Below, in pieces: positions 34,331 through 53,953 of a stretch of DNA of 64,000 bases (its first letter is position 1; every line of letters starts with the position of its first letter). Below the pieces are notes generated by a model that saw only the letters and a list, made by a program, of their open reading frames with translations, had not been told where the DNA came from and searched no databases. Origin of the DNA: Kyrpidia spormannii (GTDB lineage Bacteria > Bacillota > Bacilli > Kyrpidiales > Kyrpidiaceae). The translations under genes were made by a program, and so were the position numbers. Where the stretch lies: positions 868,001 through 932,000 of the forward strand of contig NZ_CP024955.1 of assembly GCF_002804065.1 (NCBI RefSeq), read 5' to 3'.

Positions 34331-35465
34331 TTAACTCTGGTGCTGTCGAGCAGGTTTCTTGTTTCGATGTCGACGGGACCATAAGGTTGTCCCGCCTGTG
34401 TAGAGTAAAAATAGCCCAGCGACGATCCAAAAGAGTGCGTCTGGGCCGAATATACTCATGACGAAGGTTCCGCCCATGGGCCCGGCGACCATACCGGCGC
34501 CAAAATGGATAACGGCCAACCGATTGGCCCGTGGGAGCTCCCGCCCGTCGACTAGATCCTGAAGGTATGCCAGGCTCAGGCTGAACAGCGAGCCGGCGGC
34601 GGCTCCGGCCAGACCGAACCCCAGGGAGAAACCCGCTGTTGAAGACGCGTAGGCGGTGGTGATCAGCAGGGCGGCGCCAACGGCGCTGCAAACGATGAGA
34701 GTCTTTCCGCGGCCGAACCGGTCGCTCCACCACCCGAGAGGCATTTGAAAGATCAAGCTACCGATCACGAACAACGACAGCGCCAAAGAGACCCCGGATA
34801 AGCTCCATCCCCGGGAGGCTGCATACAACGGGAGACCCGCGTTAAAAGCCGATTCCATAAATCCGAACGCAAAGGGCAAGGCCAAGGCGGGAAGGGCTGA
34901 GCGATACAGGCCCGGCACCCCACACAATCGGGTACGCCCGCTCATCAAGGACGGTTCATGGGGGAGTGGATCCGGACGCACATCTTGGATGCGGAGGATG
35001 GGTACTCCAGCTGCCAACAGTACGCCAGCGGCGAACAAAAAAGGGACGGGTTCTCCCCACAGGAGGGTGTTGACCCCGAGGGGCCCCACGGCGAACCCAA
35101 CTCCCGTGGAGAACCCGTACAGTGCCATCTGCCTCCCCCTGCGGGCGGGATCCGCCAAAAGTCCTAACCAAGTTTGGGTGCCGTAATGGACAGCTCCAAG
35201 CGCCGTCCCCAAAACAAACCGCAGAACCAACCAAACTGAAGCCTCTTGGAACGTCGGAAACAAGAGGGCAGACAGTGCGGCGGCCCCGAGGCCGGCGCAC
35301 ACCGTCATCCGAAATCCGATCCGGCGGGCCACTCGCTCCATGAACAGCATGGAAAAGAGCAACCCGGCATAAATGGTGACCGTGGCTGCCGCCCCTGTCG
35401 CAGTTCCTCGGGCTGCTTCCAGAGCGTTGCCAGTGCCCTGTGGATCTAGAGCGGCCAGTAGGGGG
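34331..35465 (-). pseudogene. MFS transporter, C-terminal part (split by IS607 element)
   Basis: About 377 residues of a major facilitator protein starting within TM1 (PLLAALDPQG) and including FMERVARRIGFRM (loop 2-3 motif), GWWSDRFGRGKTL in the second half, and a basic tail. It is joined in sequence to the insertion at 35464-35465. When joined to the N-terminal piece at 37593-37719 the frame is restored and gives a 419-residue protein of normal MFS length. An in-frame TTG at 35362 might yield a truncated product, unlikely to be active. Confidence 0.85.
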
Positions 35466-35532
35466 CTCGCAACTGCTCACATAAACCTTAATGAAGATTG
35501 ATATTCCTCATCATTTTGTGTAATATTATCTC

Positions 35533-36174
35533 ATGAAGGTTTCCATTGGTAGAGCCGCCAAAGAGTTGGGAGTTGCCCCGGAGACCCTTCGCCGCTGGGA
35601 AGCGGAAGGGAAAATCCGGGTGGAGCGGACACCCGGAGGTCACCGTCGGTATGACCTGGCCAGTCTTCGCGGATGGGCCCGCAAGGAACCGGAACCGAAA
35701 GAGCGGATCACTCTCGCCTATGCCCGGGTCTCCAGTCACGACCAGAAGGGGGATTTGGAACGGCAAGTGGAGTTGCTGGAGACGTTCTGCGCCGCAAACG
35801 GGTGGCGGTTTGAGGTGGTCCGCGACTTGGGTTCCGGGCTCAACTACAACAAAAGGGGCCTGCGGGAACTCATTCGCCGGATCTGTTCCGGGGAGGTGGG
35901 CCGGTTGGTGGTCACCCACAAGGACCGCCTGCTTCGGTTCGGGTCGGAGTTGGTCTTCTCCTTGTGCGAGCATTTCGGAACGGAGGTGGTCATCATCAAT
36001 GCCTCGGAAGAGGCGACCTTCGAGGAAGAGTTGGTGCAGGACGTGCTGGAGATCATCACGGTGTTTTCGGCCCGGCTGTACGGGAGCCGGAGCCGGAAGA
36101 ACCGGGACATCCTGAAGACGTTGAAGGAGGCAGCCGATGCGATTTGCCCTGAAAATGCGCCTGGAAGTGGGTGA
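35533..36174 (+). CDS. tnpA: IS607-type serine recombinase TnpA
   Basis: A 213-residue transposase. The N-terminal MerR-like HTH is GRAAKELGVAPETLRRWEAE with the wing GGHRRYD. The serine recombinase catalytic domain has the nucleophile S67 in AYARVSSHDQKGDLERQ and the helper arginine region THKDRLLRFGSELV. The order HTH first, catalytic domain second is the IS607 hallmark. It ends inside the tnpB start (38-base overlap). All main catalytic residues look intact. Confidence 0.95.
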   Translation: MKVSIGRAAKELGVAPETLRRWEAEGKIRVERTPGGHRRYDLASLRGWARKEPEPKERITLAYARVSSHDQKGDLERQVELLETFCAANGWRFEVVRDLGSGLNYNKRGLRELIRRICSGEVGRLVVTHKDRLLRFGSELVFSLCEHFGTEVVIINASEEATFEEELVQDVLEIITVFSARLYGSRSRKNRDILKTLKEAADAICPENAPGSG

Positions 36175-37498
36175 ACACACCGCGGCGGTGCTGGACGGGC
36201 AGTCGCGGATCGCCAACTGGCTGTACAATCACCTGCTCGAAGAGGCGAACACCTTGCGGGAGAAGTTCCGGAGCACCCAGGCCCCGGAAGCGGCCAGGGT
36301 GCTGTACACCAAGCGGGGCCTGCGCAACCGGATTCCGATGCTGAAGAAGGAATATCCGTTCCTGCGGACGGTGTATTCGTCGGTGCTGAAGAACGCGGCC
36401 CTGCGGCTGAGCGGAGCGATCCGGAAATACCAGAAGGCCCGTCGCGAAAAGGGGGCGAAGAAGGTCGGCTGGCCGAAGTTCCGGTCGTGGAAGCGGGAGT
36501 GGTTTTCGTTGCAATACGACGAGCCCTGGAAGGGCTTCGGACTGGAGTACGGGACTTTGCGGTTATCCCTGGGGAAAGTCCTGGACGAAAAGACAGGCAA
36601 GGAGAAGCAAGCCCAGGTGACCGCCCGTCTGGCGGAACCCTTGCCCGATTGGTTCGAACCGGGAATGGTTCGCCAGCTTCGGATCGTCAAGGAAGGGAAG
36701 CTGTTCTACGCGGTGTTCACGGTGGAGAGGCCTGTACCGGCCCGGCGGCCTGTGGGACGGGTGATCGCGATTGACCCGAACCACAAGAACCTGGGCTACG
36801 GAGTGGGGACCGACGGGGTGGCGACGGAAATCCAAAACCCGTGGTTTCTCAAGATTCTGGACCGGCGGATTGACGAGGTAAAGTCTCTTCGGGACCGGTG
36901 CAAGAGGAAGTCGGTTCGGGTGGTACGGGAAGACGGATCGGAGGTGTGGTTGCCGTCGCGAAGGTGGAAGAAGCTGAACGAGCGGCTGGAAGAGCTGTGG
37001 CGGGTGCGCCGAGAGCAGACGAAGGTGTACCTGTGGACGGTGGCCAACCGGTTGTACCGGGAGTATGACGGGGTGTATGTGGGGAATTACACGCCGCACG
37101 GCGGGGGGATCAGCACAGGAATGCGCCGGGCGATGAACAACCAGTCGCTTATTGGTCGGTTCAAAGAGGCCCTGGAGTGGGTGGCGACCCGGTCGGGCAA
37201 GGTGTACGGGGAGTGGGACGAAGACGGGTCGACCCGGACGTGTTGCCAGTGCCACTACAAAGTGCCGGTCGGGATTCCTCCGGAGGTTCGGGAGTGGACC
37301 TGTCCGGAGTGCGGGACGTACCACATCCGGGACGAGAATTCATCGATCAACGGGCTTAAGCAAGTGCTTGAAAAGCTAGAGGTGCCTGGCTCGGGCCGTC
37401 TGGGAGGCAAGATTGCCGTATGCACCAGGCGGGCTTGGCGGTTCGACGGTCTAGGGATCCAAGAGATTTCGGGGGCCGCCGGCGGGCGGGTGAGTTGA
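36137..37498 (+). CDS. tnpB: TnpB RNA-guided nuclease-family protein of IS607 element
   Basis: A 453-residue TnpB. The RuvC-I aspartate is D213 in VIAIDPNHKNLGYGV. The zinc finger has CCQCHYKV and CPECGTYHI, and RuvC-III has D399 in RDENSSINGL. Where the RuvC-II glutamate is expected (EDL-type motif) this protein reads VYVGNYTP with N317 and no acidic residue; E344 or E347 in the next helix could substitute. TnpB uses a guide RNA from the element's 3' end to cut empty target sites. Whether this copy can cut is open. Confidence 0.93.
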   Translation: MRFALKMRLEVGEHTAAVLDGQSRIANWLYNHLLEEANTLREKFRSTQAPEAARVLYTKRGLRNRIPMLKKEYPFLRTVYSSVLKNAALRLSGAIRKYQKARREKGAKKVGWPKFRSWKREWFSLQYDEPWKGFGLEYGTLRLSLGKVLDEKTGKEKQAQVTARLAEPLPDWFEPGMVRQLRIVKEGKLFYAVFTVERPVPARRPVGRVIAIDPNHKNLGYGVGTDGVATEIQNPWFLKILDRRIDEVKSLRDRCKRKSVRVVREDGSEVWLPSRRWKKLNERLEELWRVRREQTKVYLWTVANRLYREYDGVYVGNYTPHGGGISTGMRRAMNNQSLIGRFKEALEWVATRSGKVYGEWDEDGSTRTCCQCHYKVPVGIPPEVREWTCPECGTYHIRDENSSINGLKQVLEKLEVPGSGRLGGKIAVCTRRAWRFDGLGIQEISGAAGGRVS

Positions 37499-37592
37499 TC
37501 ACGCCGCCAGCCGCCAAGAAATCAAATGAGGGACATGACAGTCCTGAACCCAGATCCTGCGCAAAAAGAGATTTGTGTAGGTTTGGGAGAGC
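37499..37592 (+). ncRNA. Probable 3' part of TnpB omega (reRNA) scaffold
   Basis: The segment from the tnpB stop to the right end is non-coding and contains short GC stems near 37501-37516. In TnpB systems the guide RNA scaffold covers the tnpB 3' end and the right end, with the guide read from the flank. The guide here would start at about 37593-37595. This is inferred from position; I could not fold it. Confidence 0.4.
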
Positions 37593-37719
37593 GGATGAGC
37601 ATTCCTTGGCTTGTGGTCGCTGCACCCACCGCCGTCGTAATCGACCAGAATGCGCGGTGATTCTGTAAATCGCGGGGATGAGATTCTTTGAGCGGGTCAT
37701 TTCGGATCCGTTTCGACAT
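37593..37719 (-). pseudogene. MFS transporter, N-terminal part (split by IS607 element)
   Basis: It starts at ATG 37719 with caaggagg upstream and codes MSKRIRNDPLKESHP then HRAFWSITTAVGAATTSQGM-LI, the start of TM1, up to the element. Forty-two codons are complete before the break, and the next codon is made from the shared GG and 35462-35464. This confirms that the C-terminal piece at 34331-35465 belongs to the same gene. Confidence 0.85.
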
Positions 37720-38238: not shown

Positions 38239-38314
38239 TGGTGGGCCGTGAGGGAATCGAACCCCCAACCATCCGATTAAGAGTCGGGTGCTCTACCAAT
38301 TGAGCTAACGGCCC
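38239..38314 (-). tRNA. tRNA-Lys (anticodon CTT)
   Basis: The minus strand folds as a cloverleaf: acceptor gggccgt with acggccc, D-arm tagctcaattggtagagca, anticodon loop ctCTTaa, T-loop ggttcgattcc, discriminator A and encoded CCA. It is last of the three tRNAs in transcription order. Confidence 0.95.
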
Positions 38315-38318
38315 GAGG

Positions 38319-38394
38319 TGGTGACCCTAATGGGATTCGAACCCATGTTACCGCCGTGAGAGGGCGGCGTCCTAAACCACTAGACGATAGGGCC
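38319..38394 (-). tRNA. tRNA-Glu (anticodon CTC)
   Basis: Acceptor ggccctat, D-arm cgtctagtggtttaggacg, anticodon loop ctCTCac, T-loop ggttcgaatcc and encoded CCA. It lies 4 bases before tRNA-Lys. The gene for its charging enzyme, gltX, lies just upstream in the same direction. Confidence 0.94.
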
Positions 38395-38399
38395 GACAA

Positions 38400-38473
38400 T
38401 GGCTGCGGGACTAGGACTCGAACCTAGACTACCTGATCCAGAGTCAGGCGTGCTACCATTGCACCATCCCGCA
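38400..38473 (-). tRNA. tRNA-Gln (anticodon CTG)
   Basis: Acceptor tgcggga with tcccgca, D-arm ggtgcaatggtagcacg, anticodon loop ctCTGga, T-loop ggttcgagtcc, discriminator G and encoded CCA. It is the first tRNA after the promoter at 38494-38523. Confidence 0.94.
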
Positions 38474-53803: not shown

Positions 53804-53953
53804 CTCTTATCCAGAGTTGGCGGAGGGACGGGCCCGATGATGCCGCGGCAACCGGTCGGAACACCGGCACGGTGCCAATTCCTGCGGGGAGACCCCGGAA
53901 GATGAGAGAGGGGGACAATAGTCCGACCTCTTTCCACCGGAAAGGGGTTTTTT
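53804..53953 (+). promoter_or_regulatory. SAM-I (S-box) riboswitch with terminator
   Basis: The aptamer starts ctcttatccagag, continues with ggcggagggacgggcccgatg, ccgcggcaacc and cacggtgccaattcctgcgg, and closes with gaagatgagag at about 53908. The terminator is cctctttcc/ggaaagggg (53927-53947) with six T. SAM binding should stop transcription before metF. Confidence 0.96.

What the first reader, a model, noticed from the sequence alone, without database searches (positions are those of the whole stretch)
36137..37498. TnpB lacks the expected RuvC-II acidic residue
RuvC-I D213 and RuvC-III D399 and both zinc knuckles are intact, but the RuvC-II strand reads VYVGNYTP (N317) instead of an E-containing motif. 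Either the active site is rearranged, with E344 or E347 in the next helix taking over (such rearrangements are known in TnpB families), or this copy is a dead nuclease that binds without cutting.
Basis: partly seen in the sequence, partly recalled or inferred. Interest (0 to 1): 0.55.

Follow-up and report, generated by a model that had tools for sequence, protein, structure and literature searches.

The report
TnpB with a relocated catalytic glutamate
This gene-cutting protein of a bacterial jumping gene looks as if it lost one of its three catalytic acids, but the missing acid has moved to another part of the chain, an arrangement already known from Fanzor enzymes, so it is probably a working nuclease.

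Summary
The ORF (36137-37498, +) is the TnpB of an IS607-type element (35462-37594). Of 50 other TnpBs aligned, 49 have Glu at column 316 and none of those has Glu at 362; the window's family (11 of 11) is the reverse, with G316 and E362. E362 lies exactly six residues before the first zinc cysteine, the published "Ealt" position of Fanzors and some IS607 TnpBs; solved Fanzor2 L79 also aligns Gly at 316 and Glu at 362. E344 and E347 are not conserved (5 and 1 of 11), and 317 is Asp in 9 of 11. Nine intact tnpB copies have pairwise dN/dS 0.17-0.29, similar right ends that fold into hairpins, and the window copy sits in a site that is empty in a same-genus genome. So: a relocated active-site residue, most likely an active RNA-guided nuclease. 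The unusual part is RuvC-I: D-P-N instead of DPG or D(hydrophobic)G, so both published search patterns for Ealt proteins miss this small family. Activity was not tested.

The parts
35462..37594 (+). whole IS607-type element; left end GGGGCTCG..., right end ...GAGCGG
   Evidence: similarity to other copies stops at these bases (in L118 and L001 the BLAST match does not reach the left end); ends lined up in 10 left and 12 right copies; the empty site in G001, 602035-602542, reads left flank + GGGG + right flank
35533..36174 (+). TnpA serine recombinase, MerR-type helix-turn-helix at N-terminus
   Evidence: NF033518 transpos_IS607 1.7e-67; PF00239, PF00376
36137..37498 (+). TnpB, 453 aa, overlaps the end of tnpA
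   Evidence: fold matches ISDra2 TnpB 8h1j Z 28.7, rmsd 2.8, 355 aligned
36773..36781 (+). RuvC-I: D213-P214-N215 (DPN in 11 of 11)
37082..37084 (+). G316, the column of the canonical RuvC-II Glu
   Evidence: E in 49 of 50 other TnpBs; Gly in Fanzor2 L79
37085..37087 (+).
37220..37222 (+). E362, relocated RuvC-II Glu (Ealt), six residues before C369
   Evidence: 11 of 11; Glu in 1 of 50 other TnpBs, L040, which also lacks the canonical Glu; aligns to the Glu of L79 VNEYLTTKTC; published definition PMC10711439
37241..37312 (+). zinc-binding cysteines C369, C372, C389, C392
   Evidence: PF07282 at 340-405, 3.2e-13
37331..37333 (+). RuvC-III D399
   Evidence: 11 of 11, 50 of 50 others
37400..37594 (+). 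putative omega-RNA (reRNA) region: end of tnpB plus non-coding right end (inferred)
   Evidence: mean column identity 93% in 12 copies; 64 predicted pairs, 6 with a change on both sides, 3 of these 6 wholly or partly inside the tnpB frame of most copies
37595..37614 (+). flank directly after the right end = predicted guide of this copy (inferred from the TnpB model, not shown)
   Evidence: position only

Best explanation
An RNA-guided TnpB nuclease of an IS607-type element whose RuvC-II glutamate has moved from the end of a RuvC strand (G316 here) to the loop after the next strand, E362, six residues before the zinc finger. D213, E362 and D399 would form the metal site and cut DNA matching the guide encoded just past the right end, next to a G-rich motif; its likely role is to cut the emptied donor site so that the element is kept. 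Shown here: the sequence swap, its conservation, the fold, purifying selection, element ends and one empty site. Inferred: metal binding by E362, cleavage, guide, motif, and role in element retention.
For: Column swap 316/362: 49 of 50 other TnpBs have Glu at 316 and none of these at 362. E362, D213, D399 and G316 are invariant in 11 of 11 family members from seven genomes or records; E362 is also in 6 of 6 further fragments that cover it. HMMER aligns solved Fanzor2 L79 (9b0l) with Gly at 316 and Glu at 362; the model matches 9b0l at Z 20.0, rmsd 4.3, 366 aligned. Published passages: Ealt is a Glu six residues upstream of the zinc finger, found in Fanzors and some TnpBs (PMC10711439); in Fanzor SpuFz1 E541 with D383, N385 and D606 coordinates two Mg ions (PMC10432273). 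dN/dS 0.17-0.29 over 36 pairs of nine intact tnpB copies. Four near-full tnpB copies in the genome, the window's included; the insertion is absent from a same-genus genome at that site.
Against: No biochemical data on this family. The tools gave no model coordinates, so distances D213-E362-D399 were not measured. The model rests on 40 sequences, 36 of them canonical, mean pLDDT 83.9, with loop 321-330 under 50. D-P-N at RuvC-I is in neither published Ealt group. Nine of the 11 family sequences (window included) are at least 80% identical to the window's, so independent support for E362 in the family rests mainly on the two at 42-43% and on pieces. One fragment (L089) has Asp, not Gly, at 316. 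Copies in relatives are partly broken (L003, L124, L125), and of the four near-full copies of G000 one has a stop in tnpA and one has no tnpA match at 1e-40. The compared TnpBs were found with patterns from P0001 and are not a random sample.
Confidence: 0.83

Rival explanations
1. A nuclease-dead TnpB that still binds RNA and DNA and acts as a guided repressor or transposition regulator (TldR-like).
For: No acid at the canonical RuvC-II position.
Against: All three acids are present if E362 counts, and they are kept in 11 of 11; still inside a mobile element with an open tnpA; dN/dS low in all 36 pairs, although selection for binding alone would also lower it.
Confidence: 0.08
2. One reading: E344 or E347 in the helix after RuvC-II supplies the third acid.
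For: Both are Glu in the window copy.
Against: E344 is Glu in 5 of 11 and Lys, Gly or Asp in the rest; E347 is Glu in 1 of 11. Both lie inside helix 328-353.
Confidence: 0.02
3. D317 is the family's RuvC-II acid (one residue late), and the window copy with N317 is a recently disabled member.
For: 317 is Asp in 9 of 11 and in 7 of 7 further fragments that cover it; Asn needs one base change from GAT.
Against: Among 50 other TnpBs, 49 of them with the Glu at 316, column 317 is Asp in 32 and Thr, Ser, Asn or His in 18, so it does not behave as a catalytic column; Asn occurs again in L001 and in the separate Ealt protein L040 (VGNVSS); E362 remains.
Confidence: 0.05

Closest known systems
Ealt IS607 TnpBs, including cyanobacterial 'pro-Fanzors' (PMC10711439)
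   Same: IS607 TnpA partner; Glu six residues before the zinc finger, canonical Glu absent; spacing of the C-terminal motif fits the published pattern
   Different: RuvC-I is DPN, not DPG; the DPN family was found in Bacillota genomes, a Meiothermus, a Cupriavidus plasmid and a MAG titled Actinomycetes (there a piece without RuvC-I), and in 0 of 194 cyanobacterial genomes at E 1e-20, a search without positive control. The canonical position is Gly here and Pro in the three pro-Fanzors read (by eye)
Ealt TnpBs with D(hydrophobic)G: here Ktedonobacter (L184, L192, L198, L205), Thiothrix L075 and L040
   Same: VGD or VGN at RuvC-II and an Ealt Glu; the Ktedonobacter pair is next to the DPN clade in the tree (98/92)
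   Different: RuvC-I DLG instead of DPN
Fanzor2 L79 (PDB 9b0l) and Fanzor1 SpuFz1
   Same: Gly at the canonical site and Glu at Ealt in L79; SpuFz1 has N385 two residues after D383, both reported to coordinate Mg, as N215 follows D213
   Different: eukaryotic/viral; L79 has DPG. I did not see the SpuFz1 sequence
ISDra2 TnpB (8h1j, 8exa, 8bf8)
   Same: fold, D213 and D399 equivalents, zinc finger; 8h1j Z 28.7, rmsd 2.8 over 355 residues
   Different: Glu at the canonical strand end, none at Ealt; IS200/IS605 element (recalled)
ISFba1 IS607 TnpB (8iaz; PMC11061315)
   Same: IS607 TnpB; RNA-guided cutter whose activity depends on D194, E290 and D371 in the passages read; Z 23.9, rmsd 3.7 over 367 residues
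   Different: E290 lies 81 residues before D371, so it is canonical by spacing (inference); RAGATH-18 guide RNA, while no Rfam family reached its gathering score in the window's right end

Membership tests
IS607 element | serine-recombinase TnpA with N-terminal HTH | tested here: met
   NF033518 226.6 bits, cut-off 110; PF00376, PF00239
IS607 element | insertion at a GG crossover without target duplication | tested here: met
   empty site ...TAG-GGGG-ATGAG... in G001 against ...TAG-GGGGCTCG... and ...GCGG-ATGAG...; one site only, exact crossover ambiguous within the G's
RNA-guided TnpB | family profile above curated cut-off | tested here: met
   NF040570 147.5 bits, cut-off 100
RNA-guided TnpB | RNA-guided DNA cleavage | not testable with these tools
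   no assay
Ealt TnpB | no Glu at the canonical RuvC-II column; Glu six residues before the first zinc Cys | tested here: met
   pattern with any RuvC-I triplet met by 11 of 11; columns 316 and 362
pro-Fanzor (DPG + Ealt) | DPG at RuvC-I | tested here: not met
   DPN in 11 of 11; published DPG pattern matches 0 of 11, the D{P}G pattern 0 of 11 (spacer read as 120 to 160)
pro-Fanzor (DPG + Ealt) | one clade with cyanobacterial pro-Fanzors | tested here: inconclusive
   tree puts Ktedonobacter proteins closer (98/92), but DPN+DPG held together is not rejected, p-AU 0.484
nuclease-dead TnpB (TldR-like) | loss of RuvC acids | tested here: not met
   D213, E362, D399 kept in 11 of 11

The most novel reading that the evidence does not exclude
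The family is a third branch of the Ealt enzymes with a four-residue D-N-E-D metal site: N215 of the DPN motif binds metal as N385 of Fanzor SpuFz1 is reported to do, and the branch shares its relocated glutamate by descent with the lineage that gave rise to Fanzors, outside cyanobacteria.
Probability: 0.3. Interest if true: 0.5.

Novelty: new variant of a known kind. Interest (0 to 1): 0.3.

Why it matters
It shows how a missing catalytic residue can be a misread: the acid has moved, and the enzyme should not be filed as dead. The family also carries a RuvC-I motif (DPN) that both published search patterns for Ealt TnpBs exclude by construction, so such proteins can be overlooked in surveys of Fanzor relatives. 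If active, it would be a compact (453 aa) bacterial enzyme in which the role of the extra Asn can be tested directly; some relatives bear record titles that hint at hot places (CF.Solf and HOT.MB MAGs, Meiothermus; inference from names).

Tried and rejected
Rejected: N317 as the missing acid (off by one); E344 and E347 (not conserved); D317 as the family's acid (the column varies also where the canonical Glu exists). Filing it as a pro-Fanzor (DPG not met).

Led nowhere: viral-contig scan with alignment A1, 33 stretches, none a relative; the viral-contig scan with P0001 gave 45 loci at 21-53% identity of the best segment, and the phage and plasmid searches listed one close relative, the Cupriavidus record at 42%, the other listed rows being 22-32% (40 of 86 plasmid records listed). 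0 of 299 genomes of the phylum of L039 at E 1e-25 and 0 of 194 cyanobacteria at 1e-20, both without a positive control in the set. PDB searches with one and with three pro-Fanzors listed no chain named SpuFz1. Paper searches 'rearranged catalytic site' and 'rearranged' + 'glutamate' with TnpB found none; no search for the DPN motif in print was made and supplementary tables could not be read, so 'new' means only that I did not see it. Of the 4 of 249 genomes, three lie at the contig places of G291, G176 and G065 and are taken to be the same genomes under other handles.

Rows dropped or chosen: alignment A2 took 39 of 52 non-redundant rows; the count was therefore repeated on all 52, with the same outcome (36 of 36, 49 of 50, where the exception is L040, which one search listed apart). 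L194 was set aside as a chance match of the pattern. L230 (pro-Fanzor) lacks the zinc cysteines and fails the Ealt pattern; it was kept in the tree for its DPG and aligned Glu. The tree took 7 of the 11 DPN rows.

Whether Ealt arose once is open: in the tree with trait columns removed, L040/L075 fall apart from the other Ealt rows, but holding all Ealt rows together gives a slightly higher likelihood (p-AU 0.534).

Full report
What is there. The ORF at 36137-37498 (+) encodes a 453-aa TnpB, matched by NF040570 guided_TnpB at 6.2e-43 and, at its C-terminus, by PF07282. It overlaps the end of a serine-recombinase TnpA, 35533-36174, matched by the IS607 transposase model at 1.7e-67. Similarity to other copies of the element ends at 35461/35462 and 37594 (in two of the twelve loci, L118 and L001, the BLAST match does not reach the left end), and the ends line up in 10 left and 12 right ends. 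A same-genus genome, G001, has the corresponding site without the element: left flank, GGGG, right flank. So this is one copy of an IS607-type element that either inserted after the two genomes parted or was lost from the other.

Checking the observation. D213, D399, the two cysteine pairs and VYVGNYTP are all as described. The numbering of the missing acid is not. HMMER alignments to ISDra2 TnpB and to the designed nuclease 9yyg put G316, not N317, on the strand-end glutamate. Fifty-two non-redundant full-length TnpBs from the search for related loci were aligned with the window protein; leaving out its close kin L001 and L002, 49 of 50 have Glu in column 316; column 317 is D 32, T 7, S 6, N 3, H 2. 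A first count on 36 of these rows gave 36 of 36. The rows were drawn by patterns from the window protein and are not a random sample of TnpBs.

Where the acid went. Column 362 is Arg in 33 of the 50, and Glu in one: L040, which is also the one with Gly at 316. In the window's own family, 11 sequences from G000 (4 copies), G001 (2), two Bacillota MAGs, G291, a Cupriavidus plasmid and G176, the residues D213, P214, N215, G316, E362, the four cysteines and D399 are invariant; E344 is Glu in 5 of 11, E347 in 1 of 11, and 317 is Asn in 2 and Asp in 9. Nine of the eleven, the window included, are at least 80% identical to it, so the weight rests on the two at 42-43%. Eight further pieces of broken or cut copies agree: E362 in 6 of the 6 that cover it, G316 in 6 of 7 (L089, a fragment, has Asp), Asp at 317 in 7 of 7.

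What it matches. E362 is followed by exactly six residues and then C369. A published survey defines this as Ealt: Fanzors, and some TnpBs, have the RuvC-II glutamate six residues before the zinc finger instead of about 50 (PMC10711439, passages read). The solved mimivirus Fanzor2 L79 aligns with Gly at 316 and Glu at 362. In Fanzor SpuFz1, E541 together with D383, N385 and D606 coordinates two magnesium ions (PMC10432273, outline and passages read). Another paper places the Glu in the loop between the fifth strand and the zinc domain, and calls this the classic pattern of Fanzor, TnpB and Cas12a alike, which sits ill with the Ecan/Ealt division (PMC11423790, passages read). The AlphaFold model (mean pLDDT 83.9) has strand 312-316, helix 328-353 containing E344 and E347, strand 356-360, then E362. 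It matches ISDra2 TnpB (8h1j) with Z 28.7, rmsd 2.8, 355 aligned, ISFba1 TnpB (8iaz) with Z 23.9, rmsd 3.7, 367 aligned, and Fanzor2 (9b0l) with Z 20.0, rmsd 4.3, 366 aligned. Coordinates were not supplied, so no distances were measured. Two further papers that I recall as describing rearranged TnpB/Fanzor sites were not held.

Is it alive. Pairwise dN/dS among nine intact tnpB copies (codons 10-437) is 0.17-0.29 in all 36 pairs. This shows constraint on the protein, not cleavage as such. Not all elements are whole: of the four near-full copies in G000, one has a stop in tnpA and one has no tnpA match at 1e-40, and L003, L124 and L125 carry broken tnpB. The right end, 37400-37594, has a mean column identity of 93% in 12 copies and folds into hairpins with 6 of 64 pairs changed on both sides in at least one sequence. 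Three of the six lie wholly or partly in the tnpB frame; the other three (columns 134-145, 135-144, 158-183) lie past the stop in the window copy, but in L003 and L173, the two that carry the change at 134-145 and 135-144, the frame runs on into that hairpin. So this is weak evidence for an omega-RNA. No Rfam family reached its gathering score there.

What is unusual. RuvC-I reads DPN. The two patterns of the published survey require DPG or D(not P)G; each matches 0 of the 11 family members, while the same pattern with DPN matches 11 of 11. Ktedonobacter (four proteins read), Thiothrix L075 and L040 have DLG with an Ealt glutamate, and three cyanobacterial TnpBs next to IS607 TnpAs, of 30 such loci fetched, have DPG, two of them with a full Ealt pattern. 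In a 54-row tree built without the trait columns, the DPN clade is firm (100/99), the Ktedonobacter pair is next to it (98/92), and the pro-Fanzors join these (97/92); DPN + DPG as one clade is not rejected (p-AU 0.484). The sample is small and branches are long. The family looks rare: 4 of 299 genomes of the window's phylum at E 1e-15, its own included, one of the four with broken pieces only, and 1 of 111 in the phylum of Meiothermus at 1e-25, the source genome itself.

Verdict. The arrangement is known. What may be new is the DPN form of it.

Noticed in passing
window genome G000, C1:263762, 548199, 2567762, 2843301, 3003172, 3075638, 3208203, 3216315: The genome holds 11 IS607 TnpA matches at E 1e-40, eight of them at places other than this family's copies, so further IS607 groups are present.
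   Followed up: no
window 53804-53908 (+): SAM riboswitch, 87.1 bits.
   Followed up: no
window 38242-38473 (-): Three tRNA genes in a row, beginning about 650 bases beyond the element's right end.
   Followed up: no
L184, L192, L198, L205 (Ktedonobacter racemifer): 18 matches in one genome that span about 70-393 of the family profile; the four read have DLG at RuvC-I, VGDL at RuvC-II and an Ealt glutamate.
   Followed up: partly
L230 (cyanobacterial genome G392): A DPG-type TnpB with the Ealt glutamate aligned but without the zinc cysteines (TSKTVSWTGE), next to an IS607 TnpA; G392 has 8 IS607 TnpA matches.
   Followed up: no
L239, L241 (Bacillota), L207 (cyanobacterium): IS607 TnpAs followed by long TnpB-like ORFs that read GIDTN, GIDVN or GLDIN where RuvC-I is expected (by eye) and lack the zinc-finger cysteine pattern.
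   Followed up: no
L172, L177-L179 / record NZ_CP068436.1: Three near-identical copies of the 43% relative on one Cupriavidus necator megaplasmid; the collection's table lists no gene at the one looked up.
   Followed up: partly
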